Assembly: GCA_036924285.1 (NCBI GenBank)
Contig: JAYKYS010000008.1
Span: forward strand, 12,261,001-12,325,000
Direction: 5' to 3'
Source: Asterella californica
Taxonomy: Eukaryota; Streptophyta; Marchantiopsida; Marchantiales; Aytoniaceae
Length of the DNA stretch: 64,000 nt
The position numbers and the translations under genes are program-made. Of this stretch, positions 12,341-53,808 are shown one piece after another. Position 1 is the stretch's first letter; every line of letters starts with the position of its first letter. The notes beneath the pieces were generated by a model, which was given only the letters and a program-made list of their open reading frames with translations, was not told where the DNA came from and did no database searches.

Positions 12341-12523
12341 AGTTTGGTACCTCGGCTAGGTTGACCGAGTGCGAAGTGGCGCATCCTGGTAACGCCGTTA
12401 GTGCCGTTAGGGCGAGTTGGTGGGAGAGCCCACTAAAGGTATACTTCGCAGGTAGGGCTTGGAGGCCTTAGTTCTTCGAGTTAAGCCTTCAAGCTCCAGG
12501 CTATGGTGGATAGTCTAGTTGAG

Positions 12524-12624
12524 TGTAACCCGGATTCTCTTCGCGTTTAGAGTAGGTTTGGCTTGACCGTTTGTGAGTAATCTTTGTTGTAGTGTTGGAG
12601 ATGGTAATTTCTCAATGCAGATTA
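12524..12624 (+). repeat. 5' LTR of the methyltransferase element (short)
   Basis: It begins TGTAACCCGG, which aligns with TGTAGCACCCGG at the 3' copy. It then lacks about 35 bases present there and from 12,537 to 12,624 matches the 3' copy at 86 of 88 positions. The exact right end is uncertain: a TG...CA boundary would put it at 12,619. An 11-bp inverted repeat (AGTTCTTCGAG at 12,470-12,480, CTCGAAGAACT at 12,625-12,635) flanks it. An alternative is that a longer LTR starts near 12,340 and the 3' copy lost part of it. Confidence 0.6.
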
Positions 12625-14340: not shown

Positions 14341-14415
14341 CGGGATTCTCTCATCACGAAGTTCTCGGGAGGTTCTGGTGGGGACTTCTCGGACAGTGGG
14401 TATACACGGAGTGGG

Positions 14416-16869
14416 GTGAGGTACCGACTACCTACACCATTATCGTCGGTTGTTCCAGAGGACGAGTCAGACGCAGACAGCGCATTTTCTGATGAGGAGT
14501 CTAGTGTCGTCACACCGTTGTTGTGGGACATGGACGAGATCTATGGGGCCACGAAGGGGCCTCGACGTTACTCGGGTACAGTTGGTACCATTGAGCTGGA
14601 TGACTTCATCCAGGAGTTCGACAGTTGGTTCGATCTGCAGCAGATGCGGAACCCACAGCTGTTTACACCCTTCATGGCGTGGAAGGGTTTGTTCCAACAC
14701 TTGGAGGGACCGCCGATGGACGATTATCATGAGTTCAGGCGAGACTACAGTGTTGAGATCGAGTTGTGGAGACAACATTGGTCTCCCAACTACGTTTCTA
14801 TCACTACTGGCGCAGTTTCAGGAGGCGTAGCACCTGCGAGTTCGGGTGCCAGTAGCAGTGATACATCCACAAGTGGCGGAGTACCTACTACCAGCGGTGC
14901 GTCCACAAGTAGTGGAGCAGGTGGTAGTGTGAGCGAGATACCACCAGGATTTAACCCTGTGGTTCAGTTCTTCCAATGTTTGAGAAATAACTATCAGGGT
15001 GTGCGGACCGACAAGTTGAGGAGTCTGCAGGAGTTCCAGCGGAAGACTGGAAAGAGCTTACGCGAGGCATTTACTCGCATGAGACGGTTGATCAGCGTTA
15101 CCCAAGGGGTGACGGAAGCACAGGCAGTCCAGTTCTGGTATGGGATACTAGACCGGGAGCTGCGTAGGAGAGTTAGAGATGCTACTCTCCTTAGAGATAC
15201 CGCTCCGACGTTGGCGGTTGTCTTTAGTCTGGCTGAGCGGATTGAGCTCAACATGGTGGAGGAGAGGGTGGTGGTTGCTAGGTTCAGCAAGGAGACACCA
15301 CATGGAGCGACCACCTCTTCTCGAGGATCACAGGCCACGCAACAACGTGGTGGTAGTGGTGGTGGTGGTGGTAAGGATCGTGCGGAGCAGTCACGATCTC
15401 AGGGAGGTGTTGGAGGATCTGGTGGGCAGAAGCCCATGCCGTCCTTCTCTAGCCAGCATCAAGCGGGTCCTTGTTGGACGTGTGATGGTCCTCATCAGCA
15501 AAAAGACTGTCCACAAAGGAGAGGTGGTTATGAGACGTCAGGAACGTCTCAAGCAGCACCTAGGCAATGTGAGCATTGCGGACGACCTGGTCACAGTAGT
15601 GACCGTTGTTTTGATCTCCATCCCGAGTTGCGGCAAGGGAAGGCTGATCGTGGACGAGGCGGAGGAGCTCAGGGAGGCCGTGGTGGTCGAGCTGGAGGTA
15701 GAGGTCCAGCACCTGGGAGAGGACCGGTCGGTCCACTGTCTGCTACGACGTCAGAAGCAGGTATAGCTGCTCGGATTGAGCAGTTGGAGCAGAGGATAGC
15801 TAGTATGGCTATGGCTCAGCGGAGATCAGGTGGAACAGAGGCTTCCACGTCTTATGGAGGAGAAGGAGGTGACTTCGACTTCATGGCTGGTGTGGAGCAG
15901 ATTGAGGCATCTGCGGTAGTGACTAGAGATGCAGTACATGCCTCTGAACCACGAGGTGCGTCAGTGGAGTTGGATCCACAACGCGGGGAGGTTGGTAGAC
16001 AGGCCAGGCTTCCTCAGTCGTTCACGTTATCGGAGGCGTTGAGGACCACATCTATGGTTCCTAAACGGCCTACTGATGGTGCAGTAGAGTTGGAGGCATC
16101 GACATCCAGGAGTGAGTGTGATGTGAGTCCACCTTCGACGTCTGTGGATGCGACGTCGAATCCGATATTGGAGGCGGCTACAGCAGTTTTGCGAGCCCCA
16201 CTATTCTCAACCATGGATATGAGAGCATTGGGAGTCAACCTGGCTCCAGTGTTCCAGTTGGCGGCCACGCTTAGTGAGAGAGAGGATGTAGTTACCTCTA
16301 GTGCTGAAGTAGTTCAGCGAGAGACGGTAGACGTGTCCATGGAGTCGAAGATCAGGACAGCTACCAGTGGTACTTGGCAAGCGGCGGCTGCTAGGTTAGA
16401 TGAGTTACCAGCTAGGCTGACGATTGACCGTGCTGGTTTAGCACCAGGTGTGGTGTTGTTGGACAACAGAAGTGGTATCTTCTGTTTGGTGGCACCTTCT
16501 GGGAAAGTGTATCGACCCCAGAAGGTCTTGTTAGACTCAGGAGCCCAACCGTTGATGTTGAGAAAGGCGGCGTGTATTGGTTTGGGTCTGAAGAAGTCCG
16601 AGATAGAGAGATGTCCATTCCAGTTGCAAACATCTCTAGGGGGATCAGGAGGTACGACTCTACACATGACATGTGAGATGTTGACGGTGAGAGTTCGGTC
16701 AGATCATCCCACGGATGGCTCTATGATGAGGGCCAAGGCCATCGTTACAGCCGCAGAGTCTTATGATGTATTGGTGGGAGGTGCTGTGTTGTACCTTATG
16801 GGGTTCGTGATCGACTATTGGGCGGAGACAGCATCTTACAGACCAGATTGGCAGTCCGGTGAGGGATGA
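14416..16869 (+). CDS. gag-protease polyprotein of the methyltransferase element
   Basis: An open frame of 817 codons; it is open from 14,341, and the first in-frame ATG is at 14,530, so the true start is not settled. Residues 55-290 (from 14,416) hold a gag-like capsid region interrupted by a Ser/Gly/Thr-rich linker (135-175). Two zinc knuckles follow: CWTCDGPHQQKDC (353-365, with the rarer CX2CX3HX4C spacing) and CEHCGRPGHSSDRC (385-398, canonical CX2CX4HX4C), then an Arg/Gly-rich RNA-binding stretch. The retroviral-type aspartic protease has its DSG at residue 707 (VLLDSGAQ) and the later hydrophobic motif YDVLVGG near 783. It ends at TGA 16,867-16,869, and the same frame continues directly into the methyltransferase. 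Confidence 0.8.
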   Translation: MRYRLPTPLSSVVPEDESDADSAFSDEESSVVTPLLWDMDEIYGATKGPRRYSGTVGTIELDDFIQEFDSWFDLQQMRNPQLFTPFMAWKGLFQHLEGPPMDDYHEFRRDYSVEIELWRQHWSPNYVSITTGAVSGGVAPASSGASSSDTSTSGGVPTTSGASTSSGAGGSVSEIPPGFNPVVQFFQCLRNNYQGVRTDKLRSLQEFQRKTGKSLREAFTRMRRLISVTQGVTEAQAVQFWYGILDRELRRRVRDATLLRDTAPTLAVVFSLAERIELNMVEERVVVARFSKETPHGATTSSRGSQATQQRGGSGGGGGKDRAEQSRSQGGVGGSGGQKPMPSFSSQHQAGPCWTCDGPHQQKDCPQRRGGYETSGTSQAAPRQCEHCGRPGHSSDRCFDLHPELRQGKADRGRGGGAQGGRGGRAGGRGPAPGRGPVGPLSATTSEAGIAARIEQLEQRIASMAMAQRRSGGTEASTSYGGEGGDFDFMAGVEQIEASAVVTRDAVHASEPRGASVELDPQRGEVGRQARLPQSFTLSEALRTTSMVPKRPTDGAVELEASTSRSECDVSPPSTSVDATSNPILEAATAVLRAPLFSTMDMRALGVNLAPVFQLAATLSEREDVVTSSAEVVQRETVDVSMESKIRTATSGTWQAAAARLDELPARLTIDRAGLAPGVVLLDNRSGIFCLVAPSGKVYRPQKVLLDSGAQPLMLRKAACIGLGLKKSEIERCPFQLQTSLGGSGGTTLHMTCEMLTVRVRSDHPTDGSMMRAKAIVTAAESYDVLVGGAVLYLMGFVIDYWAETASYRPDWQSGEG

Positions 16870-18409
16870 GTGAGCCGCTTACCAGTGCGGTTCAGTGCTA
16901 GAGTTGGGACGACGGAGCCTACACCAGGGACGATGGCATCCGTTGCAAGGTTCAGTTCGGTCATCACTTGGCCGGGCGAGTTGTTGGAGGGCAATGCCCA
17001 TGCGGAAGATACTCCAATCTTTGAGGAGGTGGAGGACATGCCTAGCATGTCTACGTTAGTACCATCTGTCTTGGATGTTCCACTCTGGAGTTCGAGTGGA
17101 GAGTTGCAGCAGTATGCTGATCAGTTGGTGCAGCAGGCTTGGAGTGAAGCCTTTGTACCACCAGTAGATGAACAAAGGATTGTTCTTGCTACTGGCCTTG
17201 TGATCTTATCACCGTTGGATACGACTCCCATTGTGTGGCAGTATCCAGAGGAGAGTGTATGTGTGCTGGAGCTGTTTGGAGGGATCAGCACAGGTTTGGC
17301 GGCGGTATTGCAAGCAGGCATACAAGTACAGCGATACTTGTATGTGGAGAGAGATGAGGTTACGAGACGCATCTCATTGCGACATGTGGCACGTTTGGTG
17401 CAGAGATATCCTGAGTTGTTGCCCATATCAGCTGTTAGAGGATAACAGCAAGCATTACCGTCGGATATTTTGCTGCTGGGGGCGCAGGATCTTACGTTTG
17501 TTGGCATCATTCACTTGGTGATAGCCGGATGGCCATGTCGAGGTCACACGCGTGCTGGGAGAGGTCAGGGTTTACATGACCCACGATCTAGGATGTTCTA
17601 GGAGATGTTACGGATCTTACGACATCTCCAGATGCAACCGGAGGATTCTCCAACGTACATATTGGAGAATGTTCCTTTGTTGGGTGATGCTCGTACACAG
17701 ATGATGGCGAGTGTGCACCAAGTGCGGTCTTGGGTTGGACCAGCAGTGTTGTTGGATGCAACGAGAGTAGGATCTCGTGCACATCATCTACGGTTGTGGT
17801 GGACGAACTTGTTACCGAGAGAGGTGCTTAAGCGCGCACGATGGAGTGAGACGACCAGCGCATCTCACGGTTGATAGCATCTTGGATGCAGGACGACGAT
17901 CTCAAGTAGTGAGAGTCGTCGATAGGTCACCCATGGCAGTGGTGAACCTAGTGGGACGGCCCATGGTAGCGTTATCCACTTTGGTAAGCTTTCCAGCGTC
18001 ACATGCTTACAGAGATGGAGGACATGGGCTTGTGTGGGATGCTCAATTACGGCAGTTGGTGGAGCCCAATGCCGATGAGAAAGAGCGAGCGATGGGTTTC
18101 GTTACGGATATGACGGCAGTAGCTTCGGTGTCAGAGGCTCCACGTCGTCAAGTATTGGGTCAAGCAATGGACTTGAATTGCTTGACATGGATTGTTAGCC
18201 TTGGATTGGCTGAGCAGCGTCGGACGGGTGTTATTGCTCGGACACTCTTGAGCTCTTTGCCTACCGGGTCGGTGGAGACAAAGGCTGGGGGCGAGGCACG
18301 TGGAGTTCGTCATCCTTGGACATCATGGGATGTCATAGAAGAGAGTGTGGAGCTTGCAGCTAGAACTGCAGAAGTTTTACGCACAGTAGCGGTGGAGGTT
18401 GTTGGTTGA
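16870..18409 (+). pseudogene. C5 cytosine DNA methyltransferase domain in the retrotransposon (broken)
   Basis: It follows protease in the same frame after a TGA. The first ~130 residues are a linker. Methyltransferase motifs then appear in canonical, unpermuted order. Motif I is LELFGGISTGL (AdoMet binding, 17,263 on). An acidic residue follows in YLYVERD. Motif IV is GWPCRGHTRAG, with the catalytic Cys codon at 17,536-17,538 and then DPRSRMF. Motif VI is ENV at 17,665-17,673. A motif VIII-like VGSRAHHLRLWW follows, then ERAMGF and a motif X-like RRQVLGQAMDLN near 18,155. Known families of this kind transfer a methyl group from AdoMet to C5 of cytosine. Motif order resembles DNMT3-type enzymes rather than the permuted plant DRMs. 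Breaks are TAA 17,443, TAG 17,599 and a frameshift near 17,840. The catalytic residues survive. Confidence 0.88.
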
Positions 18410-18473
18410 GCAGAAGGAAACTGCTCCAGAGGCGGCAAGATAGCAGTCAACGACTTCGTCTTCTACCTCTAGC

Positions 18474-19295
18474 ATGGTGACAGAAGATACTTGGGAGCCG
18501 GAGATTGGACCCAAGCTTATAGGAGAGGAGAGACGAAGAGTCCAAAGATTCCTGAAGAGCTACAGGAGTTGTTTTGCCTTCAGTATGAAGGATTTGGGTA
18601 CCTTGAAGGGACCTGGTATACGGATCGACTTGGCTAATGACATGCCAATCTTTCGATGTCCTTACAGATACAGTGACATGGAGAGAGCCTTGATCCAGAG
18701 TCGGACTCAAGACTTGTTGGAGGCTGGATTGGTGGAGATGTCGCATGGAGAGTATGCATCTGCCACAGTTATGCCAGCCAAGAAGGATATGTATGACAAC
18801 TACACAGATAGACGGATGTGTGGAGACTATCGTCCTATTAATCGGCAGACGAAGTCCGATAAGTATCCCATGCCGACACCTGAGGAGATCTTTGATGCAG
18901 TGGGGCATGTGAAGGTCTTCAGTACTTTGGATCTTCGAGCAGGGTATCATCAGTTGCCAGTGAGAGAAGAAGATAAGTCCAAGACAGCATTCTGAGGAAT
19001 TGACTCTCACGGCAAGGATTGTTTGTATCAGTGGCGGTTCTTATCATTTGGGTTGAAGAACGCCCCTGCTGAGTTCCAAAGGGTGATGGACAGAATCTTA
19101 GCAGGATTGGATTTTATCAGATGTTATATTGACGACATCTTAGTCTATAGTGCTACAGTGGAGGAGCACGAGAGACACTTACGGGATGTGTTTGAGCGGT
19201 TGAGAGCTCATGGGTTGAAGTTACACCCTGGGAAGTGTAAATTCTTCCAGGAGTTGATAGAGTATCTGGGCACACCATCTATCCAGGTGGATTGA
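18474..19295 (+). pseudogene. Reverse transcriptase of the methyltransferase element
   Basis: A gypsy-type RT in one frame with a single internal TGA at 18,993. Recognisable parts are RRMCGDYRPINRQT, FSTLDLRAGYHQL, then after the stop WRFLSFGLKNAPAEFQRVMD and the catalytic YIDDILV near 19,123, followed by GLKLHPGKCKFF. The TGA sits where relatives have Trp (KTAFWGID type), so it is probably a G-to-A change. It ends at TGA 19,293, where a frameshift moves on to RNase H. This domain copies the element RNA into cDNA. Confidence 0.88.
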
Positions 19296-20230
19296 GTGTT
19301 CAACAGACGAAGGTTGACGCTATTGCACGTATCCCACGCCCCACAGATGTGAGTCGAGTTCGAACATTTGTTGGTTTGGTGAACTTCTATCGGCGATACG
19401 TGAAAGGGTTTAGTGCAATTGCGAAGCCGTTGACCAAGCTGATGAAGATGGACCAGGAGTGGCAGTGGGGAGATGAGCAGGAGCGAGCTTTCAAAGAGCT
19501 CAAGGATAAGTTGACATCTGCTCCCATCTTGAGGAGACCCGTTAGGGTGCGTCCTTTCCAACTGCACACAGATTGGAGTATGTTGGGACTTGGAGCAGTG
19601 CTCACTCAGCATGATGATGAGAAAAAGGAGTTCGTGGTGGCGTATGTCAGTCGCTCCAACAATTCAGCAGAGGCGAGGTATAGTTCGTATGAGGGAGAGT
19701 GTTTGGCGGCAGTGTGGACTGTTGCACACTTTCGATGTTATCTGTTTGGGAACCCCTTTACTCTCATCACTGATCACCAGCCGCTCAAGTGGTTGATGGA
19801 GTCCGATAAGCTTACAGGGAAGCTTGCACGATGGGCTCTGATCTTACAGGAGTATGACTTCCAGGTAGTACATAGACCTGGAGTTGCAAACCTAGATGCC
19901 GATGGGTTGAGTCGCAACCCATGCACGAGTCAGCAGGATCAGACTGGGGCTCGCTGGCATGACAAGGTTGATGAGGAGATAGTGCCAGGGTGGCATGCAT
20001 CTGCCTTTCTTTGTGTCATGAACTCTAGTATGGAGGACCAAGTCGTATCTTTCTCTGGTCAGAGAGTAGATGATGAATCTCCAGATCCTGAGGGTGGAGA
20101 TGGTGTTCCAGATCAACGAGATATCCATGATGATGTGATCGTGATGGAGTATCTACGTACTGGTGTGATAGTAGGCACAGTAAGTGCCAAGGAGCGAGAT
20201 CGTGTTCTTCAACGAGCGAAGAGATTTTGA
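19292..20230 (+). pseudogene. RT thumb/connection and RNase H of the methyltransferase element
   Basis: It starts with the usual post-RT motif VRTFVGLVNFYRRY, then RNase H with its acidic residues in TDWSMLGLGAVL, SSYEGECLAAVW, LITDHQPLKWL and NLDADGLSR. RNase H removes the RNA strand during reverse transcription. After it come about 90 acidic residues and a TGA at 20,228; the frame then continues into the integrase zinc module. The frame differs from that of RT, so a frameshift separates the two in this copy. Confidence 0.87.
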
Positions 20231-21562
20231 CGAGAAGGACGACATGTACTTCGAGTGTGGGGTGATGGGAGGGTACGGATAGTGCCACATCCATCCTAGA
20301 GGGCACAGTTAGTACGACATGCCCATGAGGAGTTGAGACATTTTGGAGTGAAGCGTACGCATAGCTTACTCCAAGGACAGTATTGGTGGCGTGGTATGCA
20401 CGTCGATGTGCAATAGTTTGTCGCACGATGTGTGGTTTGTGATCGAGTACGAGCATCGTTTAATGCTCGTACTCCACAGTTACACTCTTTACCGATTATG
20501 GGGTTGGGTTACCGTTGGAGTTTGGATTTTGCGGGACCCTTACCGTTGACTGTACGTCACCATCGGTATGTGTTGGTGATGGTGGAGCACTTTTCCAAGT
20601 GGATTGAGTTGGTGACATTATCAGACAAGGCGAGTGAAGGGACAGCACACGCGTTCTTAGATCGAGTGCTGAGTCGTTTTGGAGCACCAGCTGAAGTGCT
20701 GACAGACCAAGATACAGAGTTCCTTGGTGAGTTTCAGGCCTTGTGTGATCAGGCGCTGATTGATCATCGGACTACATCTCGAGATCATCCTGAGGCAGAT
20801 GGTTTGACGGAGAGGGTAGTTCAGACGGTGAAGAGAGGATTGCGCAAGTATGGCTTGCAGAAGGGCCACTTGGGAGACTGGGATGTGCAGTTACCATGGT
20901 TGGCTATGGGTTACCGTTTCAACCGACAAGCGTCTTTGGCTTCCTTCTCACCGTATTTTCTATTGTATGACCGAGATCCAGATCTACCTTCGGTCATTCG
21001 TCGTGATTCTGCTGAGGTGCTGGACCTTGATGACCCGGATATGTGGGTGAGAGCATGTTCTCAACAAGCAGAGACATTTCGGATAGTTATGCCTATGGCT
21101 TTTGAGAACCTAGCGATTGCCCAGCATAGAGACACGTTGCGATATGCGACTATCCGAGAAGAGGGTTATCGGCCGTCGATTCGCAGGTTTCATTCTGGCG
21201 ATTATATCTATCTACAGCAGACTGCACCGACGACGTTGGACGTGACCGCAGGGCGCACTATTTTACGAGTGCGTGAGGTGTTACCTTCTGGAGTACTCAT
21301 GTTAGAGGGCCGTGATGGTGTTGTGTGGAAGGACCATGTGCGTAATTGCGCGCCATGTCATCTTCCCAACATTGATGGTACCGTTGACCCAAGCTTAGCA
21401 GTTGTACGCGCGGGCTTGAGGTGTATGTTGTGTGGGTCTGCTGGTGGAGCAGCCCGTATGTTGGTGTGTGATGGTTGTTCGAGAGGTTGGCACATGTCAT
21501 GTTTGACTCCATCTCTCAGTGTCGTTCCTACTAGACGATGGGTTTGTCCTCGATGTATATAG
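20231..21562 (+). pseudogene. Integrase with C-terminal PHD finger
   Basis: The HHCC zinc module lies at about 20,310-20,450 with stops near 20,297 and 20,416. From 20,432 the frame is open for 376 codons: core residues D32 (WSLDFAGP), D92 (LTDQDTEF) and E127 (GLTERVV), with 34 rather than 35 residues between the last two. The usual C-terminal chromodomain or GPY/F end is replaced by a C4HC3 PHD finger at residues 331-375: C331, C334, C346, C349, H354, C357, C372, C375, with the typical Trp (RRWVCPRC). PHD fingers commonly read the histone H3 tail, so this module may steer integration to marked chromatin. That role is inference. Confidence 0.85.
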
Positions 21563-21626: not shown

Positions 21627-21762
21627 TGTAGCACCCGGCCTCCTGATCCTTGCACCCATGAAGGTGTGTATGGCCTCTTCGCGTTTAGAGTGGGTTTGGC
21701 TTGACCGTTTGTGAGTAATCTTTGTTGTAGTGTTGGAGATGATAATTTCTCAATGCAGATTA
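21627..21762 (+). repeat. 3' LTR of the methyltransferase element (short)
   Basis: It starts TGTAGCACCCGG directly after a purine-leaning tract (AACGATGGGACGA), 65 bases after the integrase-PHD stop. It shares 21,675-21,762 with the 5' copy at 86/88. At ~136 bp this is very short for a 9-kb gypsy element. It is immediately followed by a different repeat (21,764-21,868). Confidence 0.6.
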
Positions 21763-24868: not shown

Positions 24869-25846
24869 TAAGATTCTCTCATTAAGAGTGCAAATCATCT
24901 TTTTTGGAATAGTGGATTGGGATCATCATATTGTAAACAGTGGTTGAGCGATGTATAACAATTGACATCTATCATTGACTTGCATGTAGTAGAGAGTGGA
25001 GAAACTCTATATCTGTTGGATATGGATGGGAGAATTTTTAGAATATTATGATTTATATTTCTCATCTTTTGTTTGTTGATGAGAATTTGAGAGGGTACAC
25101 AAAACTTTTTGGTGGTAAATTTTGGAGAAAGTTTTATGACTTGAATTACACATATGTCAATTCTCATCTTACTTTTCATCGCACTTATTATACAGACCTG
25201 GGGTTTAAATTGCACTTATAGATAATAATGACGTGTAAGAAAACAAAACTCTAAAGTAAAATATCCAAAACTAATATATATATATATATATATATATATT
25301 TATTGTGGATATATGCTAAATTTGTCAAGTTTACATATATCCATCATACACTGCAAAAACGTTACCCCCGAAGTTTGCACTTGACAGGGTAGACAATAAT
25401 GGAAGTGCAAAATAAGCACTCTAGTGCATTTATTTATTATTGTTTTATTTATTGACGCTCTAGTGTATAGAATGAAGGAAATTGGGCTGCTAAACTGCAA
25501 AGCCAAGGCCAAGGTAAAGTTAAAAACGGGTTTTCAAATCATTCCCCCCCTAAAAGCTTAGGGATTGGATGGTTGGTCGTGAGGTGCTCCAACAAGATCA
25601 GGTTTTGAAGCGAACGGGCGTAATTTGAAGCAGGGAACTGAAATTGCTCTCTCTTTCTCGTGCCATCCAAGTCTTCGTAGTTTCTCCCCGTCACCACTGT
25701 CGTTGGAGCATGAAGCAGCAGAGACAAGTTTCCGGAGGGTGTCCAGTGCATTCCTTGTGAAAGCTCAGGAATCCTGAAAGCTTGTTTCTTTGAGAAGAGA
25801 ACGAGCTACTTCTGTACTCCGGAGGCATAAGCCCTGTGATAGAAAC
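24869..25846. other. Truncated copia leader and 5' flank of the RNP gene
   Basis: About 400 bases after the primer-binding site could be retroelement leader. A (TA) microsatellite of about 13 units lies at 25,274-25,299. The last few hundred bases before 25,847 probably hold the promoter and 5' UTR of the RNP gene; I cannot point to a convincing TATA box. Confidence 0.4.
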
Positions 25847-26737
25847 ATGGCTGCCTCTTGCATCACTGCTGCTTCCCCTCTGGTCGCTGGGATATTGGGG
25901 GAGTCCATCGCCTATAGCCAGACTGCCCGCCATGTCTTAGCTACCCCTTCGATCAGCAGCAGTTCATGTCGCGCTAGCTTAGCAAGGAGCACCTTCTCTT
26001 CTGGGCTCTCTTTCCTCTCGTTTGCGCCCAGGGTTGCGAAGTATTCATCCGGGGATGGTGTTCTTGCTAGGGCTGTGGAATTAGACGAAACCAAGGATGA
26101 GAGTTTGTTCTCCGTAGAAGATTCACCCGACGACGAGCTTGCAGCGGTTGTCTCGAGCCCCGGCCCTGCTCCCGCGACCAAAGTCTACGTCGGTAACTTG
26201 CCGTGGAGCGTCGACAGCGAGCAGCTTGCGGCTATGTGCCAGGAATATGGAAGTGTGGAACTTGTCGAGGTCATATACGATAGAGACACTCAGAGGAGCA
26301 GAGGATTTGCCTTCGTGACCATGCGCACAGTCGAGGACGCGGAGAGAGCCATCGAGGCTTTGGACGGGTACGAGGTCGAAGGCAGAGTGCTCAAGGTGAA
26401 TTTCCCTCAGACTCGGACGTCTGACGGTGGCGTTCGGCGAACTGACAGACCTCCGCGCAGAGATGGTGGCAGCGTTGGTTCTCGCAGCACGATATACGTT
26501 GGAAATCTGTCGTGGGGAGTTGATGATGTCGCCTTGGCTGAGCTGTTTGCCGAGTATGGACAGGTTGCCGAGGCCAAGGTCGTTCATGACAGAGAAACCG
26601 GACGCTCCAGAGGTTTCGCATTCGTTACCATGTCCAGTGCGTCTGAGATGGACGTGGCCATCCAAGCGCTGGATGGTGCAGAGTTCGGTGGAAGGGTCTT
26701 GAGGGTGAACCATGCTGATGACAAGCCAGCGCGTTGA
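25847..26737 (+). CDS. Chloroplast ribonucleoprotein with two RRMs (cp29/cp31-like)
   Basis: 296 residues from the ATG at 25,847 (context GAAACATGG). The frame is open upstream to 25,790, but that part has no ATG. Residues 1-75 are Ser/Ala/Arg-rich, as in a chloroplast transit peptide. Residues 76-105 are acidic. RRM1 spans about 112-186 (RNP2 KVYVGNLPW, RNP1 RGFAFVTM at 152-159), then a basic Gly-containing linker, and RRM2 spans about 215-288 (IYVGNLSW, RGFAFVTM at 255-262). This is the architecture of plant chloroplast RNPs, which bind plastid transcripts and affect their stability, processing and editing. Length fits the family. No intron interrupts the frame, unlike many angiosperm members; a retrocopy is possible, but there is no decay. 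It converges with the fibrillin gene. Confidence 0.92.
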   Translation: MAASCITAASPLVAGILGESIAYSQTARHVLATPSISSSSCRASLARSTFSSGLSFLSFAPRVAKYSSGDGVLARAVELDETKDESLFSVEDSPDDELAAVVSSPGPAPATKVYVGNLPWSVDSEQLAAMCQEYGSVELVEVIYDRDTQRSRGFAFVTMRTVEDAERAIEALDGYEVEGRVLKVNFPQTRTSDGGVRRTDRPPRRDGGSVGSRSTIYVGNLSWGVDDVALAELFAEYGQVAEAKVVHDRETGRSRGFAFVTMSSASEMDVAIQALDGAEFGGRVLRVNHADDKPAR

Positions 26738-42939: not shown

Positions 42940-43739
42940 TGTAAGCCGGCCTGTCTCTCACCCAGGGGTACCTCAGATGACTAGGATTACTAGTGCACCC
43001 TAATTACAAAGATTTAAGTACACCCATGCTCACTTCACTCAACTCTCTGACCCGTATGGTCACATCGGTACCTCTAATAGCGTTCCTGCACACAAGTTCT
43101 AATCCCGCTCTCAACATTACATCGCAAAATACTCAAGGACTCCCAAGGTCTCCAATGCTCACTTTACTTACAGTCAGGAAAAATGAGAGTGTCTTCCACC
43201 TTCTCAACTCCTCCTTATATACTCTACAACTTCTTACCGTGGTAACTTTCACTAAGTTACGTTACCTCATGGTAAGTGCGCAATCCAAAATAGTAAAACT
43301 TCTAAAGGCTACTAAGACTCAAGAATAGCACACACATTACTTGTTCTACTTTACTAAAGTAAGAGATTCTCCTACTTTAGCTTTTGTAAAGTGTTAACTT
43401 TCCACGCTATCCAGTCGAAAGACGACAACACACTAATACGTCTTTTGAGGAGCATCTTTAGATCTTTGTGCATGACTTTTCATCATGCATCCAATCAGCG
43501 ATGGTCAACAAAGTTACATACTTTTGGAAAGCATATTTAGAGCTCCGCACTTGTCCTATAGTGCCATAGTGGAACCTCTAATAGTTTCCTCAACTTAGTT
43601 ATAACTATCTCAGCTAGTTATGACTACTTTTGATCACTCTAAATTTAGATCTTCAAACTAGAGTAACCTTTAAGATAGTCATACTTAATGAAATGTATAT
43701 AAGCATACACACAAATAATGGGATACTTGTGGTGTGACA
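42940..43739 (-). repeat. 3' LTR of gypsy C
   Basis: Plus-strand ends TGTAAGCCGG and GTGTGACA. The LTR-internal ORF (42,993-43,328 on the plus strand) also occurs unchanged in the other LTR; I regard it as fortuitous. Confidence 0.93.
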
Positions 43740-43750
43740 TTTACCCCCAG
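43740..43750 (-). promoter_or_regulatory. Polypurine tract of gypsy C
   Basis: On the minus strand CTGGGGGTAAA lies directly before the 3' LTR, just past the gag-pol stop, the expected site for plus-strand priming. Confidence 0.75.
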
Positions 43751-43752
43751 AC

Positions 43753-46700
43753 TTAATTTTCACTCCGTCCTCGGAGTGAAGTATCACGTTGATGGAACTT
43801 CTTTAGCTTGTCGTGGTTCACTCGGTCGAAGAACGTACCACTCCTTTCTTGAAGATCGTAGGTGCCATTACTCCATACTTTGGAGATGATGAAAGGTCCA
43901 AAATATCGACGTAAGAATTTCTTTTGGACTCGCTTGTGCCTAATAGCATCCCATAACATCACCCACTCACCCTCTTGAAATGGCTGTAACTTCGTTTTGT
44001 TCTTCGCCAAGCGTTTGTCATAGCTCTTCTTCTGTTGTAGCTGAGCCATCTCAATTCGTTGAGCTGCGTCGTCTCTATTCTCCTCCAGCTCCAACAAGGT
44101 TTCTCCCCTCTCTTTCTCAGCTATTGGACCACCCTTTCTCTTCAGTCCAGCTTGCAAGGTTTGAAAGGTGGTTAGGTCGAACTGGATTGGTAATCTTGAT
44201 TCCAACCCATACACCATCTTGAAAGGTGAATATCCCGTAGACGTCTTCACTGTTGTACGATACTCCCATAGAACCGCATGAAGACGCTTGTCCCAGTTGT
44301 GTTTGGCCCCTTCCATGTCAGCATCCTTTGCTAACATTTGACACAAGGTAAAGTTTGTCCTCTCTACCAAACCGTTTGAACTAGGTTTATATGAAGTAGT
44401 AACCCTCTGAGAAATGGAGAAGTGGGTGCACATAGCAGTAGTCATACCACTCACAAATTCTCGACCCCTATCAGAAACTAACTCCAGAGGACATCCAAAC
44501 CTAGTAATGATCCGTTCGTACAGAAATCTACCCACCTCAACTTCTCCAATAGTTACAAGAGGTCTAGCTTCTACCCACTTCGTAAGATAATCTGTGGCTA
44601 CAACAATATATTTATTGTTGCGAGGGGTGCGATTCAAAGGCCCAACAAAATCTATTCCCCATTTCTCGAAAGGTCCAAGAACCGGAATAGATCTAAGAGG
44701 AGTGGAAACACTAGATTTGATAGCGAAAGCTTGACAAACATCACAGGTTTTACAATACGTCAAGCAATCTCTAAACATCCCCCTCCAGTGATATCCCGCA
44801 TCGAGTATCTTATGAGCCGTCAACTTGCCTGCGAAATGTCCTCCACATACTGGACCGTCATGGAATTCTTCCATGAGTCGTAGAGACTCCTCCTTGCTCG
44901 CAGCTCTTCTCAGGACCCCATCAACTCCTTCACGGAATAACACACCTTCCACCACCGAGTAAGGTTGACTTCGTTTCATCAGTGCCTTCTTCTCTCTGGT
45001 CCGCATCCCATCTGGATAGACACCTTCCGTAACAAAATCCCAAATTTCTTGATATTCTATTGGGATAATAGAGTTGCTCAAGACCATCAAATCTTCGTCA
45101 GGAAAGGTGTCATCCACCGGCTCCTCTCCATCCCCATCGTAAGCTCTAGATAACAAATCTGCATTCGCGTGTTTCTTCCCCGGTCGATCACAGATCTCAT
45201 AGTCGTACTCTGACAATAAGAGCTTCCACCTTGCTAATCGTCCTTCGACCATAGGTTTATTGAAGATGTACTTCAATGCCTTATGATCTGTAACGATAGT
45301 GAACTTGCCTCCTATGAGATAATGTCGAAATTTTCTCAAAGCATAGATCATTGCTAATCCTTCTCTCTCTGTCACAGAATAATTTCTCTCTGCCTTGACC
45401 ATTTGCCGACTAGCATATGCGATAGGATGATCTCTACCTTCAACATCATACTGACTTAAAGTACATCCTACTGCTATATTTGAAGCATCCGTATATAGAA
45501 TAAACTGTTTATTCCAATCGGGCTTAACCAAGATCGGAGCTGAAGTAAGAGCTTTCTTCAGTTCCTCAAAGGCGGCTAGAGCTTCTTCATCTCCTAAAAT
45601 CAACACGTAATCTACTCCCTTCTTCAGATATACAGTCAAAGCATACGCTTTATGTGAGAACGAGAGTATAAACTTTCGATAATACCCCACCATACCTAAA
45701 AACTGTCGTAGCTTAGTGAGAGTACTAGGAAAAGGGAGCTCTAAGATCTTCTGCACCTTCTCTGGATCAACGGCAATGCCGTCCTTGGATATGATATGAC
45801 CCAAGAGTAACCCTTCCTCACACCCAAAAATACATTTCTCCGGATTGAGAGATGCATTTGCTACATCTAAACATTCTAAGACCTTCACAAGGTGCTCAAA
45901 ATGCTTCTCCTTACTCCCATAAACACAAAAGTCATCTATAAAATCTCTCACAAACTTTCCTAAGAAAGGTTCGAACACTTTGTTCATAAACCTTTGAAAC
46001 GTCGCAGGAGCATTACACAGACCAAATGGCATGACTCGAAATGCAAACGTACCCCACGGAGTAGTGAAAGTGGTCAGGTGTTGATGTTCTGGTGCAATTT
46101 TGATCTGGTTATATCCGCTATAACCATCTCCAAAGCTGTACCATTCGTTTCCCGCCACTTCTTCCAAGATCTCGTCGATGAAAGGTAGAGGATAATAATC
46201 CTTCTTTGTGACCGCATTGAGCTTCTTGTAATCAACACACACCCGCAATTTGCCATTTTTCTTCTTTACGATCACAATGGGTGATACCCATTCAGAATTC
46301 TCCACCTCGTAAATGAACCCAGCAGTGTGTAGCTTCTCGATCTCTTCTTTCACCAGATCCGCAATTGGAGGACTCACTCTTCGTTGCTTCTGTCGCACCG
46401 GTTTGACTTCCTTCTCTAACTCGATGCGATGCTGCTCCAGTGTGACCTCCCTCAGATCCTTGTAACTAAATGCAAATACATGAATGTATTTGCGAAAGAT
46501 CTCTTCGAAACAACTCTTCTCCTCTTTAGTAACCTTCGATCCATAACGTAAGGTGGCAATTCTTCTCTCCACCTCCTCGGGAGTCAACGGTTCTTTGTCT
46601 CGATCTCTTTGCACTTCCGGAGACGGAAAAAGATCCACTACATTCACACCCACATTTCGTTCTTCTCTCTCCTCTTCTGACGATGTATTTTCAGATTCTG

Positions 46701-48579
46701 AATCTGAAGAATTGGTACCTACATCAGAAGTAGTATCAACAACTTCTGACTCCCAGTAGTCTGATGTGGGTCGATCCGATTCTGACGTCCCAACTTGATC
46801 TCCGAGCAATGGAACTTTGATCCGGTGGTGATTCGGTCCGATGCGTAAATAACCTTTGTGCCAGTTATCCGTTGCATGTACTGCTCGAAGCCAAGGTCTT
46901 CCGAGTAACATTTCATAACTTGACTCTTTCAAGATTTGAAATGTCATGTTTACTTGCACTCCCATTACTGACACACAAACTCTCTCCAGCACTCCCAATG
47001 GTCTAACTCGCTGTCTGTTAGCCATGCCCACCGTGATACTAGAAGGACGAGTTGGTACTAGATCCAACTTCCTCATGAGTCGTTCTGAGATGGCATTTAC
47101 TGCCGATCCTCCATCGACAAGAACATCTGAGACATCTCTCCCATTGATACGAGCCTCTACTTTTGATGCCTTGTTGCACACCTCTCCTTCACTAGCATCT
47201 AAAGCACTCACACCGACAGTAGAAGGATTTACCTTCTTCTTCCGACCTCGTCGGGAGCTTAGACCGCTACGAAGTTCTTTCCTCACCGAAGGATTCAGAG
47301 CAATCAACTGTCCCACAGTAATGTTTGCTCGTTGCTTACCCACGTCTTCCACCACATTGTATTTTGATTGCTCCATCGAAATTGTGAAATCAGTATTTTC
47401 CAATTTCTTCCGCCGTTCTTTGGTTTTTGAAGAAGATTTGCTACTCCGAGTATTTTGACTTGGAGAATCTTCCATCACGACTGGTTCTCCTTCGTCGAGA
47501 TGCGTCCTCATCCTCTTCCTCTCTTGAGCCAACAGCTCTACAGATTGAAAACCTTCTCGTACATCTCGTGGTTCCAAGATGTCAATGCACGCTACACCCT
47601 TGTCCTTGCTTTGTGAAGTTGAAGCTCCATCCGCCGTTCCACCATTACGACTTGGACAATTACGTTGGAAATGTGATCCTCCACACGTAAAACATCCTTG
47701 GTTCGTGTAGTTACTTGGTGATCCTTGCGGTGGTCCACCTCTAGACTGATAGTTCCCATAACCTCGTGAGCCTCCTCCAACATTTGGACTACGGTGTTGC
47801 AACAAATTCACCATATTGATCTTCAAATCTGCCAGAGACTCTGTCAAACTTTTCAACTCATCACGAAAGTCGGGAGTAACAGATCTAGATGGTACAGTGA
47901 CTGTAACCGCACTCGTAGGAGCTACCGGAGTCAGATTCTGAAATCGAACAGTCGGAACACTCGCAGGCTTTAGAGTTGGCATGATCGGCCCTTGCATATC
48001 TCCACATGCTGCCCCAACAGTCATTGGTTGCAAGTCGTCTCCATCCAGACTCTCTTCCATCCTGGTTGCGATCTTCACTGCATCAGCCTTCGAAGTTGGT
48101 CTCTCATACCGCACTTGCGTTCGAATCTCCGGCCTCAATCCCCCAATAAAATTCTTTGTGAGCATTGCTCCAATGCCCACCATCGTTGGTTCTACTACAT
48201 CTCCACTCTTTCGTAAAACCACCCGAAACTTTTGTTCTAATTTCTCCACCCTCTCGGCGTAAGTCCTTACTTTCTCTTTCTCTCCTTGTTTGAGGTAAGT
48301 TACCTCTACCATTAACTTCTCGTAACTTTCATCAGGAAGAAAAGTTTCAATTAAAGCCTCCGTCAATACTTCCCAAGTATCAACTGGAGTCCCCACTACG
48401 CTTCTCTTCTTCCTATCCTCATACCATGTCAATGCAGAATTCTCAAGAAATTCAGGTATCAACCCTACCCACTCGCTCTTCTTTCGATCTCCATTGCCGA
48501 TGCATGCTCGTTTGAAGTCCCTCACAAATCCTTCCACGTCTTCTCCATCCTTTCCGTAAAACACCGGAAGTTTCCCCAT
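43753..48579 (-). CDS. gag-pol polyprotein of gypsy C (intact, 1,608 aa)
   Basis: A single open frame with all domains in order: gag capsid (about 1-175), zinc knuckle CFTCGGSHFQRNC (296-308), aspartic protease with D489 in VLVDGGSAVN, RT with FGDGYSGYNQI and catalytic FIDD (880-883), and RNase H with D1031, E1073, D1098 and D1141. Integrase has an HHCC module (H1240, H1248, C1279, C1282) and core D1310, D1370, E1406 (exact D,D-35-E), followed by a GPF module (YFGPFIISKVW). There is no chromodomain. The GDGYSGYNQ form of RT and the D-G-G protease resemble plant Athila/Tat-side lineages; that placement is inference. It is related to the integrase at 2-1243. Confidence 0.95.
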   Translation of the reverse strand: MGKLPVFYGKDGEDVEGFVRDFKRACIGNGDRKKSEWVGLIPEFLENSALTWYEDRKKRSVVGTPVDTWEVLTEALIETFLPDESYEKLMVEVTYLKQGEKEKVRTYAERVEKLEQKFRVVLRKSGDVVEPTMVGIGAMLTKNFIGGLRPEIRTQVRYERPTSKADAVKIATRMEESLDGDDLQPMTVGAACGDMQGPIMPTLKPASVPTVRFQNLTPVAPTSAVTVTVPSRSVTPDFRDELKSLTESLADLKINMVNLLQHRSPNVGGGSRGYGNYQSRGGPPQGSPSNYTNQGCFTCGGSHFQRNCPSRNGGTADGASTSQSKDKGVACIDILEPRDVREGFQSVELLAQERKRMRTHLDEGEPVVMEDSPSQNTRSSKSSSKTKERRKKLENTDFTISMEQSKYNVVEDVGKQRANITVGQLIALNPSVRKELRSGLSSRRGRKKKVNPSTVGVSALDASEGEVCNKASKVEARINGRDVSDVLVDGGSAVNAISERLMRKLDLVPTRPSSITVGMANRQRVRPLGVLERVCVSVMGVQVNMTFQILKESSYEMLLGRPWLRAVHATDNWHKGYLRIGPNHHRIKVPLLGDQVGTSESDRPTSDYWESEVVDTTSDVGTNSSDSESENTSSEEEREERNVGVNVVDLFPSPEVQRDRDKEPLTPEEVERRIATLRYGSKVTKEEKSCFEEIFRKYIHVFAFSYKDLREVTLEQHRIELEKEVKPVRQKQRRVSPPIADLVKEEIEKLHTAGFIYEVENSEWVSPIVIVKKKNGKLRVCVDYKKLNAVTKKDYYPLPFIDEILEEVAGNEWYSFGDGYSGYNQIKIAPEHQHLTTFTTPWGTFAFRVMPFGLCNAPATFQRFMNKVFEPFLGKFVRDFIDDFCVYGSKEKHFEHLVKVLECLDVANASLNPEKCIFGCEEGLLLGHIISKDGIAVDPEKVQKILELPFPSTLTKLRQFLGMVGYYRKFILSFSHKAYALTVYLKKGVDYVLILGDEEALAAFEELKKALTSAPILVKPDWNKQFILYTDASNIAVGCTLSQYDVEGRDHPIAYASRQMVKAERNYSVTEREGLAMIYALRKFRHYLIGGKFTIVTDHKALKYIFNKPMVEGRLARWKLLLSEYDYEICDRPGKKHANADLLSRAYDGDGEEPVDDTFPDEDLMVLSNSIIPIEYQEIWDFVTEGVYPDGMRTREKKALMKRSQPYSVVEGVLFREGVDGVLRRAASKEESLRLMEEFHDGPVCGGHFAGKLTAHKILDAGYHWRGMFRDCLTYCKTCDVCQAFAIKSSVSTPLRSIPVLGPFEKWGIDFVGPLNRTPRNNKYIVVATDYLTKWVEARPLVTIGEVEVGRFLYERIITRFGCPLELVSDRGREFVSGMTTAMCTHFSISQRVTTSYKPSSNGLVERTNFTLCQMLAKDADMEGAKHNWDKRLHAVLWEYRTTVKTSTGYSPFKMVYGLESRLPIQFDLTTFQTLQAGLKRKGGPIAEKERGETLLELEENRDDAAQRIEMAQLQQKKSYDKRLAKNKTKLQPFQEGEWVMLWDAIRHKRVQKKFLRRYFGPFIISKVWSNGTYDLQERSGTFFDRVNHDKLKKFHQRDTSLRGRSEN

Positions 48580-48714
48580 TCTTCTCTTCTTTTCTTCTTC
48601 TTACTCAAGGTACTGCTTGCAGATGTGAAGATCGCACTTCACCGCAATCCACAATTTCCCCGTTGAGCTCTCTCCTCTCCAAAGGTTGGAATAAGTTTGA
48701 CCCTCATGGTCATC

Positions 48715-49179
48715 TTATCTCTCGTGTGATAGACTATCTCCATCCTCGCTAGAGGTCTTCACTCGTTCCGTTTCTACACTCAACCTTCTCTCCAGACCTT
48801 CGGCTACAGTTTCAAGCAGAGCAACCACTGCGCTACACTCGTGCTCAACTGGAATCCCATCCACTCCACATCTAGGACAAAAGGTTGTAGGGTCAATGAC
48901 GGCTTGTCTAGGGGAAGAAGGACCTATGTGTAAGCTTAAGTCGACCAACCCTCTTCGCTCACGCAAAAGTCTATTCTTTGTAGGACACTTGCTCACTTTA
49001 TGTCCTTCTTCTCCACACAAAAAGCACCTCGAGTTCTTCTCCTGGTTCTTACGACTACTCTCTGCTTCTTCCTCAAATTCTAGTCGAAATTCTCCTTTCG
49101 CCAGATCAGCGGTAACTATCACCGCATAGCCTTGAGGGATCTTGCTCAACCTCAATTTCCACTCTTGCTGTCCTTCCAT
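48715..49179 (-). CDS. ORF0 of gypsy C: small zinc-knuckle protein
   Basis: 154 residues from ATG at 49,179, in the element leader between primer-binding site and gag-pol, ending 135 bases before the gag-pol ATG. It has a canonical retroviral zinc knuckle CFLCGEEGHKVSKC (C52, C55, H60, C65) and a second Cys/His cluster (C101, C104, H113, C115) after CPRCGVDG. The N-terminal 35 residues could form a small beta-rich domain; the C-terminus is acidic and Ser-rich. Gypsy elements do not usually carry a separate zinc-knuckle ORF upstream of gag. A role in RNA binding is plausible but inferred. The frame is free of stops in an otherwise intact young element, which supports it as real. Confidence 0.7.
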   Translation of the reverse strand: MEGQQEWKLRLSKIPQGYAVIVTADLAKGEFRLEFEEEAESSRKNQEKNSRCFLCGEEGHKVSKCPTKNRLLRERRGLVDLSLHIGPSSPRQAVIDPTTFCPRCGVDGIPVEHECSAVVALLETVAEGLERRLSVETERVKTSSEDGDSLSHER

Positions 49180-49750
49180 GACGATGATCTGTCATACATC
49201 TCTCTCGCTCTATAGTTTGTTTGACACTTTTTTATCACTCGACTATCTTCTCGCTTAACAATCTCTCACATTACTAAGTAGAAGCTTAACTTGTCAACCC
49301 TGAGCCTCAGAGATCGAACATAACCCTCTCAAGAATTCTGTAATTCTTTCACTCTTTTACTTCAGCAAGCGATATAACAGATTTGACCCCCCTTCGCTTC
49401 GAATGCCATAACTCCAATTCTACTCGATCAATTCACGCATGATTTGGGTGCCTAGATAGCTTATCTTGCAAGCTATCAGCATGGAAGATTTCAAGGTCTA
49501 ACTCTAAAAACTGAAAATATGAAAATGACTGTAAACTCCTTCCCGAGAGCTCACTATTTGATACCGAAAAACCCCCTTAACTTCCGAAAGACATAATTCT
49601 CTCCTCACAATTGATCTCTCGGAGATATCAAGCTTATTGGAAAGCTTATCTTGCCCTCTATAACATGGTGTATGTACAAAGGTTCTGAACTCATGCTCGA
49701 AAACAGACATGAACTGTACTAACGACTACATACGAATCTTTGTATCGAGG

Positions 49751-49767
49751 TCCCGGCAACGGAACCA
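49751..49767 (-). promoter_or_regulatory. Primer-binding site of gypsy C
   Basis: On the minus strand it reads TGGTTCCGTTGCCGGGA, three bases after the 5' LTR. This resembles plant gypsy sites complementary to the 3' end of tRNA-Asp (CCGTTGCCGGG shared); the tRNA identity is tentative. Confidence 0.7.
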
Positions 49768-49770
49768 AAA

Positions 49771-50570
49771 TGTAAGCCGGCCTGTCTCTCACCCAGGGGT
49801 ACCTCAGATGACTAGGATTACTAGTGCACCCTAATTACAAAGATTTAAGTACACCCATGCTCACTTCACTCAACTCTCTGACCCGTATGGTCACATCGGT
49901 ACCTCTAATAGCGTTCCTGCACACAAGTTCTAATCCCGCTCTCAACATTACATCGCAAAATACTCAAGGACTCCCAAGGTCTCCAATGCTCACTTTACTT
50001 ACAGTCAGGAAAAATGAGAGTGTCTTCCACCTTCTCAACTCCTCCTTATATACTCTACAACTTCTTACCGTGGTAACTTTCACTAAGTTACGTTACCTCA
50101 TGGTAAGTGCGCAATCCAAAATAGTAAAACTTCTAAAGGCTACTAAGACTCAAGAATAGCACACACATTACTTGTTCTACTTTACTAAAGTAAGAGATTC
50201 TCCTACTTTAGCTTTTGTAAAGTGTTAACTTTCCACGCTATCCAGTCGAAAGACGACAACACACTAATACGTCTTTTGAGGAGCATCTTTAGATCTTTGT
50301 GCATGACTTTTCATCATGCATCCAATCAGCGATGGTCAACAAAGTTACATACTTTTGGAAAGCATATTTAGAGCTCCGCACTTGTCCTATAGTGCCATAG
50401 TGGAACCTCTAATAGTTTCCTCAACTTAGTTATAACTATCTCAGCTAGTTATGACTACTTTTGATCACTCTAAATTTAGATCTTCAAACTAGAGTAACCT
50501 TTAAGATAGTCATACTTAATGAAATGTATATAAGCATACACACAAATAATGGGATACTTGTGGTGTGACA
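49771..50570 (-). repeat. 5' LTR of gypsy C
   Basis: Same 800 bases as 42,940-43,739. Transcription of the element would start here, leftwards. Confidence 0.93.
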
Positions 50571-51556
50571 GTCCGATATTGTCATCTGGGACAAGCGAAT
50601 TAGACACATGAACTTTCAGAGGTCGAAAAGTCTTCCGAGTTCTGGCTTGGTTACAGGTCTGCCCAAATTCGAATCCAATGAGCCCACTAGAGTCCGTGCA
50701 GCATGTCAGTTCAGCAAGCAAGCTAGACAGGCTTTTAAGGGATCAGGTAACAGAGCGAACAAGCTTCTGGAGCTTGTTCACACTGATGTATGGACTGCTT
50801 CTCAGCCAAGTATGACCAGTTTTCAGTACTTTGTGTCGTTAATTAATGATCATTCGCGTTATACTTTGTGGAGAAACAAGTCCTCTGCCGAAGTACTGTC
50901 AGCATTCTAGACTTTCCGCAAGTTGGTGGAGAAACAGTTTGGAGCTTCTATCATTTGTCTGAAATGTGATGGAAGAGGCGAGTTTTTTTTGGAGAGTTCG
51001 GTGCATATCTGCGTGAGCATGGCATTCGGCGTCAGAAGACATGCAGTTACAATCTACAGCAGAACGATGTTGCGGAGCGCAAGAATCGACACATAGCAGA
51101 AGCTGCTCGTGCGATGTTGAATGAGAAGACCATGCCTAGACCTTACTGGGTAGAAGTTGTTTCATGTGCGGTGTATCTGATGAACAGGACGTCTACCGCA
51201 ACAGTCCACAGTCAGACACCGAAGGAGGTCTTCACAGACAGTAAGCTTGATTACTCTTTTCTTAAAGTTTTTGGATGTATCTGTTATGTACACATACCTG
51301 ATGAGAGACGTAAGAAACTTGATCCAAAAGCAGATAGATGTATTTTCCTTGGATATGCTTCTGATACGAAAGGATATAGATGTTACAATCCTTCGTCCAA
51401 GCAATTCTATATTAGTAGAGACGTTGTTTTTGATGAGCTACAGTCCTGGTTTGCACCTGCACTTGTCGTAACCATCCTTGTACCTACTGTAGAACCAAGG
51501 AGTCAATCCATTGTAGTACCTCAGAATAGTACGATGAGTGGAGGATATGGAGAAGG
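50571..51556 (+). pseudogene. copia fragment C, continued: integrase remnant
   Basis: Resumes after gypsy C with the GAG-pre-integrase region (NFQRSKSLPSSGLVTGLPKF, AACQFSKQAR), the first integrase Asp (LVHTDVWTASQPS), then SFQYFVSLINDHSRY. After frameshifts come the NDVAERKNRHIAEAARAM region with the catalytic Glu, and the conserved KVFGCICYVHIPDERRKKLD and GYRCYNPSSKQFYISRDVVF. It ends at GGAGGATATGGAGAAG, where an unrelated gag fragment begins. Confidence 0.8.
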
Positions 51557-51716
51557 TTGGCATCATGGAATTCTCTTGAAATTGCATCCAAAACCTCTCG
51601 TGATAGGAACCCAATCTTCGCATCTCAAATGCGTTCCTCTCAACCTCTCTTCACATCCATCGTCATCATCCCAATATCTGATTGTTGTTTGCATGCAACC
51701 AGATCACTCATATCCA

Positions 51717-53054: not shown

Positions 53055-53061
53055 CCCTAGT
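52999..53061 (-). repeat. 33-bp in-frame tandem duplication at the gag start
   Basis: A 30-base unit (plus strand GCAGTTGCTGCATCCAGCTG then CACCCCTAGT) occurs at 52,999-53,028 and 53,032-53,061 with a 3-base spacer. It adds 11 residues to the gag N-terminus without shifting the frame. Confidence 0.85.
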
Positions 53062-53581
53062 GTTGACGAGTACTATAGTTTTGACTCCTTATTCACTAGA
53101 AACGGAGCTGTACAGAGAACAAACTCAAAATATCATAAAATTGCTCCTGTGAAGTACCAGCACGTTCACCTAGAAGCTTCCCGTTATCTATTCAAAAAGA
53201 AAAACATACAAGTTGCAAGTCTCCTCTCTACTCGTTTCTGTCCTCTCCTCTCAATCCCTCGATGTCAAAACTTTGATCAATCAGAAATTTTGTCTAGTCG
53301 TAAGTGTAAAACTCTCCTAGCTCTTCGATTCTCTACGTGATGATCGATCTCCTCTCTATGAGAATTCTCCACACTCCATAATGATCTTAGAATTCTCTCA
53401 CCTCTGGAGTACACCCCCTCTGGGTTTTCCTCCACCCTATGTAACCTTTATTGTCACCTGGCAGGAGTAAAAGATGCCCTAAACAAATGGCAGCAGAAAA
53501 ATAATACACTGATAATAAATCAACACGTAAGAAGACTAGTTCACAAGTCTTCGCAGGTTCATCTGTACAGATGGTCACTGA
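53062..53581. other. LTR scrap and flank of the full copia element
   Basis: 53,063-53,107 matches a piece of the gypsy B LTR (34,141-34,200) in plus orientation (AGTACTATAGTTTTGACTCC). The remainder to 53,581 contains no recognisable gene. Confidence 0.5.
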
Positions 53582-53808
53582 TGTAGAAAGATCGATACTT
53601 CGAGGACACTCCAAGAAGAGAGAGCGAGTAGACAAGGAAGTAAAATAGGAATGAGATGAGAGAGGCTTTACCTCTCTCTGTATATATAGTGGAGGTGAGT
53701 ACAAGAGAAATCCTAATGGTGGGTTAGCCCTCTAACTAACTCTAACAACCCTAACCACTCTGGCTAATGATAGCCGTCGATCTACTAGAGCTTGGGACTA
53801 TATCAACA
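53582..53808 (-). repeat. 3' LTR of copia D
   Basis: Plus-strand ends TGTAGAAAGATCG and TATATCAACA. To its right, minus-strand GAAGGAGAG serves as the polypurine tract. Confidence 0.93.

What the first reader, a model, noticed from the sequence alone, without database searches (positions are those of the whole stretch)
16870..18409. A DNA cytosine methyltransferase inside a Ty3/gypsy retrotransposon
Between protease and RT of a gypsy element lies a full-length C5 methyltransferase domain with motifs I (LELFGGISTGL), IV (catalytic Cys in WPCRGH), VI (ENV), a VIII-like and a X-like motif in canonical order. This is a host chromatin-writing enzyme captured by a retroelement. Methyltransferase-bearing retrotransposons are known from charophytes and dinoflagellates (2018 report), so this may be a member of that system or an independent capture. 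The element might methylate its own cDNA or new copies, perhaps to hide from or set up host silencing. The last sentence is inference.
Basis: partly seen in the sequence, partly recalled or inferred. Interest (0 to 1): 0.95.

Follow-up and report, generated by a model that had tools for sequence, protein, structure and literature searches.

The report
Retrotransposon carrying its own DNA methyltransferase
This is a decayed copy of a retrotransposon, from a family that also occurs in liverworts and mosses, that carries a DNMT3-like DNA methyltransferase beside its protease and a PHD finger on its integrase; working relatives likely put methylation marks on their own new copies, which would make plant mobile DNA a user as well as a target of DNA methylation.

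The parts
12523..12624 (+). remnant of the 5' long terminal repeat, borders uncertain; 12537-12624 is repeated at 21675-21762
   Evidence: 88-nt direct repeat, 86 of 88 identical; TGTA..ACCCGG shared at 12523 and 21627
14395..16866 (+). Gag and aspartic protease, one open frame (start codon not identified)
   Evidence: open frame; zinc knuckles and LLDSGAQ seen by eye; Pfam below cut-off; aligns with Marchantia P0002 at 59% through the DNMT
16867..16869 (+). in-frame TGA stop between protease and methyltransferase in this copy
   Evidence: relatives have a residue here
17257..18223 (+). DNMT3-type C5 cytosine methyltransferase domain, broken by stops at 17443 and 17599 and a frame change near 17836-17840
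   Evidence: fold of a 75%-identical relative
18441..18449 (+). TAG CAG TCA between methyltransferase and RT, matches the leaky-stop motif UAG CAR YYA; readthrough is inferred
   Evidence: motif definition
18444..19290 (+). reverse transcriptase, broken by a stop at 18993-18995 and a frame change near 19280
   Evidence: RVT_1 E 1.6e-23 for 18996-19292; the piece before is below cut-off
19550..19855 (+). RNase H
   Evidence: RT_RNaseH E 3.7e-36
20417..21562 (+). integrase with C-terminal PHD finger; rve core 20510-20791 (frame upstream, 20228-20416, holds stops)
   Evidence: rve E 9e-13
21422..21556 (+). PHD finger (C4HC3)
   Evidence: PF00628 E 2.5e-10; pattern in 112 of 124 integrase rows
21627..21762 (+). 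start of the 3' long terminal repeat, far end uncertain

Best explanation
This is a dead copy of a Ty3/gypsy retrotransposon whose family carries a DNMT3-type cytosine methyltransferase as the last domain of a Gag-protease-methyltransferase reading frame, and whose working copies likely package that enzyme and methylate their own cDNA before a PHD-tipped integrase inserts it. Shown: the domain order Gag-PRO-DNMT-RT-RH-IN-PHD, the DNMT3 fold (model of a relative), conserved catalytic residues across the family, an undamaged relative, and TAG-CAR-YYA between DNMT and RT in both the window and L007. Inferred: most ribosomes would stop at the TAG, so the methyltransferase is made in Gag-like amounts and enters the particle, while a minority read through and make Pol. 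Inferred: the enzyme meets double-stranded cDNA in the particle or pre-integration complex and methylates it de novo. Inferred: the PHD finger guides the integrase to a histone state. A new copy would thus arrive already carrying the host's mark, which could protect it or calm it on arrival. None of the inferred steps was tested.
Against: This copy is dead. CpG is not depleted in the element: 0.73 against 0.74 in the rest of the window. The Klebsormidium gypsy domain gave no methylation in yeast, which its authors call inconclusive. One family row has lost the catalytic Cys by E (Volvox P0103), one reads Y (P0155), and 10 of 26 rows outside the window's group have Glu for the Pro before it. 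Only two DNAs were available for the junction; nine-base matches are expected about 4.4 times by chance in the window on both strands, 2 found. No activity, packaging or methylome data.
Confidence: 0.5

Rival explanations
1. The methyltransferase acts on RNA or merely binds nucleic acid in the particle; methylation of cDNA is not its task.
For: It sits with Gag, which handles RNA; some relatives change the residue before the catalytic Cys or lose the Cys; no CpG depletion; authors of 2018 raise an RNA role for the LINE type.
Against: Nearest to DNMT3, a DNA enzyme, in sequence and fold; DNMT2, the RNA enzyme, ranks far lower. Cys, Glu and Arg of the active site are kept in the window's group.
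Confidence: 0.15
2. The enzyme acts in trans on the host genome, tuning silencing of the element or its neighbours, and cDNA is not the main target.
For: A PHD partner that could bring the complex to chromatin; accidental action on the host methylome is discussed in PMC5890265.
Against: In the Gag-PRO frame it would be made for the particle; no methylome was available.
Confidence: 0.15
3. The domain is a relic kept by descent, with little present function.
For: Many broken gene models; Volvox row has lost the active site.
Against: Active-site residues conserved over distant rows and higher identity than flanking stretches.
Confidence: 0.12
4. Origin: the bryophyte-type elements took up DNMT3 independently of KnitGypsy-Dnmt3, as the 2018 paper argues for charophytes and dinoflagellates.
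For: The three named Klebsormidium integrases lie outside the 16-row set that holds window and L007; KnitGypsy DNMT is described in the Pol ORF, here it is with Gag-PRO; two positions of DNMT exist among relatives.
Against: It is not known whether those Klebsormidium rows carry DNMT; PHD-tipped integrases are shared with Klebsormidium and Volvox; DNMT and integrase distances agree. The KnitGypsy sequences were not held.
Confidence: 0.4
5. A host DNMT gene fragment fell into this one copy by chance.
For: This copy is damaged throughout.
Against: The same plan occurs in many gene models and in L007; the window aligns to Marchantia P0002 from gag through DNMT at 59% in one piece.
Confidence: 0.01

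Closest known systems
KnitGypsy-Dnmt3 of Klebsormidium nitens (de Mendoza et al. 2018, PMC5890265; parts 1-4 of 7 read)
   Same: Dnmt3-type methyltransferase, not rearranged, inside an LTR gypsy element of a streptophyte.
   Different: There the DNMT is described in the Pol ORF and repeats are DIRS-like; here it ends a Gag-PRO frame before a TAG, the integrase has a PHD finger (not mentioned there), and hosts are bryophytes. Sequences could not be compared.
SymbioDIRS-Dnmt3 and SymbioLINE-Dnmt of Symbiodinium (same paper)
   Same: Retrotransposons with a cytosine DNMT; the DIRS type is Dnmt3 and active on CG in yeast.
   Different: Other element classes (tyrosine recombinase, LINE); described as unrelated to the gypsy case.
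DNMT3A/3B catalytic domain
   Different: About 26% identity; no ADD or PWWP domain in the element; the histone-reader type domain sits on the integrase.
Chromodomain integrases of chromoviruses (recalled; title seen in a reference list)
   Same: A histone-reader domain at the C-terminus of a gypsy integrase.
   Different: PHD finger in place of a chromodomain, plus a DNMT.
Type I stop-codon readthrough; readthrough candidate in rice gypsy-type elements (PMC2754532, PMC11166343; passages read)
   Same: UAG followed by CAR YYA where only part of the product should extend.
   Different: Here the stop follows a methyltransferase domain; readthrough not measured.

Membership tests
DNMT3 | C5 motifs in unrearranged order (unlike DRM) | tested here: met
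   motifs I, IV, VI, VIII, IX, X in order
DNMT3 | nearest to DNMT3 among solved C5 methyltransferases in sequence and fold | tested here: met
DNMT3 | catalytic residues present | tested here: met
   window keeps Cys, Glu, Arg; family counts
DNMT3 | clusters inside the eukaryotic DNMT3 clade with host genes | not tested
   only DNMT3A pieces were at hand as outgroup
DNMT3 | methylates DNA | not testable with these tools
   needs an assay
Ty3/gypsy (Metaviridae) | order PRO-RT-RH-IN | tested here: met
Ty3/gypsy (Metaviridae) | long terminal repeats | tested here: inconclusive
   88-nt direct repeat, borders and target-site duplication unresolved
KnitGypsy-Dnmt3 | Dnmt3 inside a gypsy element | tested here: met
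KnitGypsy-Dnmt3 | DNMT in the Pol ORF | tested here: not met
   DNMT ends the Gag-PRO ORF before TAG in L007 and, by homology, in the window
KnitGypsy-Dnmt3 | DIRS-like repeat arrangement | tested here: inconclusive
KnitGypsy-Dnmt3 | DNMT sequences form one clade | not testable with these tools
   KnitGypsy sequences not returned
Type I readthrough stops | UAG followed by CAR YYA | tested here: met
   2 of 2 DNAs
Type I readthrough stops | measured readthrough product | not testable with these tools
   needs a reporter assay

The most novel reading that the evidence does not exclude
A reader-writer retrotransposon lineage of the green plants: one old capture of DNMT3 and a PHD-tipped integrase make an element that writes DNA methylation on its own cDNA in the particle and reads unmodified histone H3 to choose where it lands, with a leaky stop setting the ratio of writer to reader. 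New copies would be born already marked, so the silencing mark is brought by the element itself and not placed by the host.
Probability: 0.22. Interest if true: 0.88.

Novelty: new variant of a known kind. Interest (0 to 1): 0.64.

Why it matters
DNA methylation is a main tool with which plants silence transposons. A transposon family in liverworts and mosses that keeps a DNMT3-type methyltransferase, with a PHD finger on its integrase, reverses the usual roles. Marchantia is a genetic model with many sequenced copies, so the question of why retroelements carry DNMTs, left open in 2018, can be tested there: in the particle, at new insertions, and with catalytic mutants. The Gag-frame position and the leaky stop give a concrete prediction about dose and packaging.

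Tried and rejected
Chance fragment in one copy: rejected. DRM-type or bacterial-type enzyme: rejected by motif order and nearest solved structures. CpG depletion as a trace of self-methylation: looked for, not found. dN/dS: synonymous sites saturated between the two DNAs held, so only identity contrasts are given. LTR borders and target-site duplication: not resolved; a DIRS-like repeat plan was neither shown nor excluded. Viral contigs: 6 loci; only L001's ORFs were listed, by eye an ordinary C5 methylase gene; L002-L006 were not followed, nor L008. Host of the window: the trees put the element among bryophyte rows; the species was not found. Integrase-PHD model: mean pLDDT 69.7, not searched further. 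PHD specificity: sequence neighbours are fingers of KMT2C, DPF2, KDM5B, CHD4, PHF21A and others; that several of these read unmodified H3K4 is recalled. Rows dropped: 13 of 67 partial or degraded DNMT rows before the tree; 53 of 124 integrase rows were given to the tree, and 35 of those 53 have unknown DNMT status. The 41-row group was picked by hand from the tree and architecture.

Papers: PMC5890265 parts 1-4 of 7 plus find passages; PMC12344493, PMC6453930, PMC11244446, PMC2754532, PMC11166343 find passages only; all others search listings only. Claims of 'not found in print' rest on the nine searches in one open-access library (one search was on readthrough); most subscription papers, preprints and supplements were not searched.

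Full report
1. What is there. Window 14395-21562 (+ strand) is a gypsy-type retrotransposon: Gag with two zinc knuckles, aspartic protease, a C5 methyltransferase domain, reverse transcriptase, RNase H, integrase and a C-terminal PHD finger. RT, RNase H, integrase core and PHD pass Pfam cut-offs; Gag and knuckles stay below them and the protease has no Pfam hit in the window, so these are named from motifs seen by eye and from alignment to relatives. The methyltransferase runs from 17257 to 18223 with motifs I, IV, VI, VIII, IX and X in canonical order. Pfam DNA_methylase is reached at E 7.2e-7 when the damaged stretch is read with X at its stops; cut at the stops, only one piece gives E 0.085. 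This copy cannot make the protein: an in-frame stop lies before the domain, two stops and a frame change lie inside it, and RT and integrase are damaged as well.

2. It belongs to a family. A search with the methyltransferase part returned 24 proteins: 15 named Marchantia polymorpha (some may be the same locus in two assemblies), one Calypogeia fissa, one Sphagnum fallax and seven without an organism name. A profile search returned 90 rows, some of them repeats, among them Sphagnum troendelagicum. The window aligns to Marchantia P0002 in one piece from gag through DNMT at 59% identity. One whole element was recovered as DNA: L007, a 9285-nt contig filed under a Synechococcales bin, whose ends overlap by 127 nt, as an assembly of an element with identical terminal repeats could. 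It encodes ORF1 (1346 aa, Gag-PRO-DNMT), a TAG, and ORF2 (1047 aa, RT-RH-IN-PHD) in the same frame. DNMT, RT, RNase H, integrase and PHD of L007 pass Pfam cut-offs; its protease is below.

3. The junction. In L007 the stop is TAG CAA TCA; in the window, at the same place and in the RT frame, it is TAG CAG TCA. Both fit UAG CAR YYA, the type I readthrough motif (definition read). In the 64-kb window this nine-base pattern occurs once on the + strand, at this junction, and once on the other strand; about 4.4 on both strands would be expected from base composition, so its position and recurrence carry the weight, not its rarity. Several related ORF1 proteins (P0148, P0151, P0154, P0005) end at the corresponding place, though their stop triplets were not seen. 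If the stop is leaky, the methyltransferase is made in Gag amounts and Pol in smaller amounts. This is inferred.

5. The PHD finger. PF00628 at E 2.5e-10. A C4HC3 pattern is found in 112 of 124 related integrase rows, including two of three Klebsormidium rows and two Volvox rows. The nearest solved fingers include KMT2C, DPF2, KDM5B, CHD4 and PHF21A. The residue two before the zinc His is Gly, not the Trp of H3K4me3 readers (this comparison is recalled), so unmodified H3 is the better guess.

6. Trees. With 55 rows the window sits in a 9-row set (100/98) with Calypogeia, Marchantia, both Sphagnum species and two unnamed rows. In the integrase tree of 53 rows it joins P0025 and Calypogeia (97/92); window and L007 share a 16-row set (100/99) that excludes the 16 rows labelled as having DNMT between RNase H and integrase, and also the three named Klebsormidium rows; DNMT status of 35 rows is unknown. 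DNMT and integrase distances correlate over 16 proteins (Mantel r 0.58; 0 of 9999 permutations as high). The domain has therefore long travelled with its element. Whether one capture or several lie at the base cannot be said without host DNMT3 genes and the 2018 Klebsormidium sequences.

7. Against the reading. CpG is not depleted in the element (0.73 against 0.74 in the rest). No activity or methylome data were available; the only hint of expression is one relative's ORF2 whose name looks like a transcript assembly (P0028). The Klebsormidium domain gave no methylation in yeast, a result its authors call inconclusive.

8. Known or new. Gypsy elements with Dnmt3 are known from Klebsormidium nitens. 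That paper's main text has no occurrence of Marchantia, PHD or protease and one of bryophyte, about host genes. [quoted passage not shown] Nine searches of one open-access library found no report of bryophyte or chlorophyte members, of the Gag-frame position, or of the PHD partner. I file it as a new variant of a known kind.

Noticed in passing
L007 (CADCWO010000201.1) and P0150: Eukaryote-type retrotransposon sequence filed in bacterial bins (Synechococcales, Obscuribacterales): likely contamination that could mislead surveys of bacterial methyltransferases.
   Followed up: partly
P0080, P0095, P0106, P0126, P0103: Relatives with DNMT between RNase H and integrase often read Glu-Cys in place of Pro-Cys at the active site; the Volvox reticuliferus row has lost the Cys.
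   Followed up: partly
P0021 and P0022, after the PHD finger: A further C-terminal stretch with no Pfam hit that by eye resembles a methyltransferase-like fold; not examined.
   Followed up: no
window 42940-50570: Another gypsy element with one open 1615-aa Gag-PRO-RT-RH-IN frame (43753-48600, - strand) between two 800-nt repeats that are 100% identical: a young insertion, no DNMT or PHD hit.
   Followed up: partly
window 50970-57567: Copia-type pieces (RVT_2, SH3_retrovirus, gag_pre-integrs) on both strands.
   Followed up: no
window 25778-26734: Open frame with two RRM domains, probably a host gene; by eye like chloroplast ribonucleoproteins.
   Followed up: no
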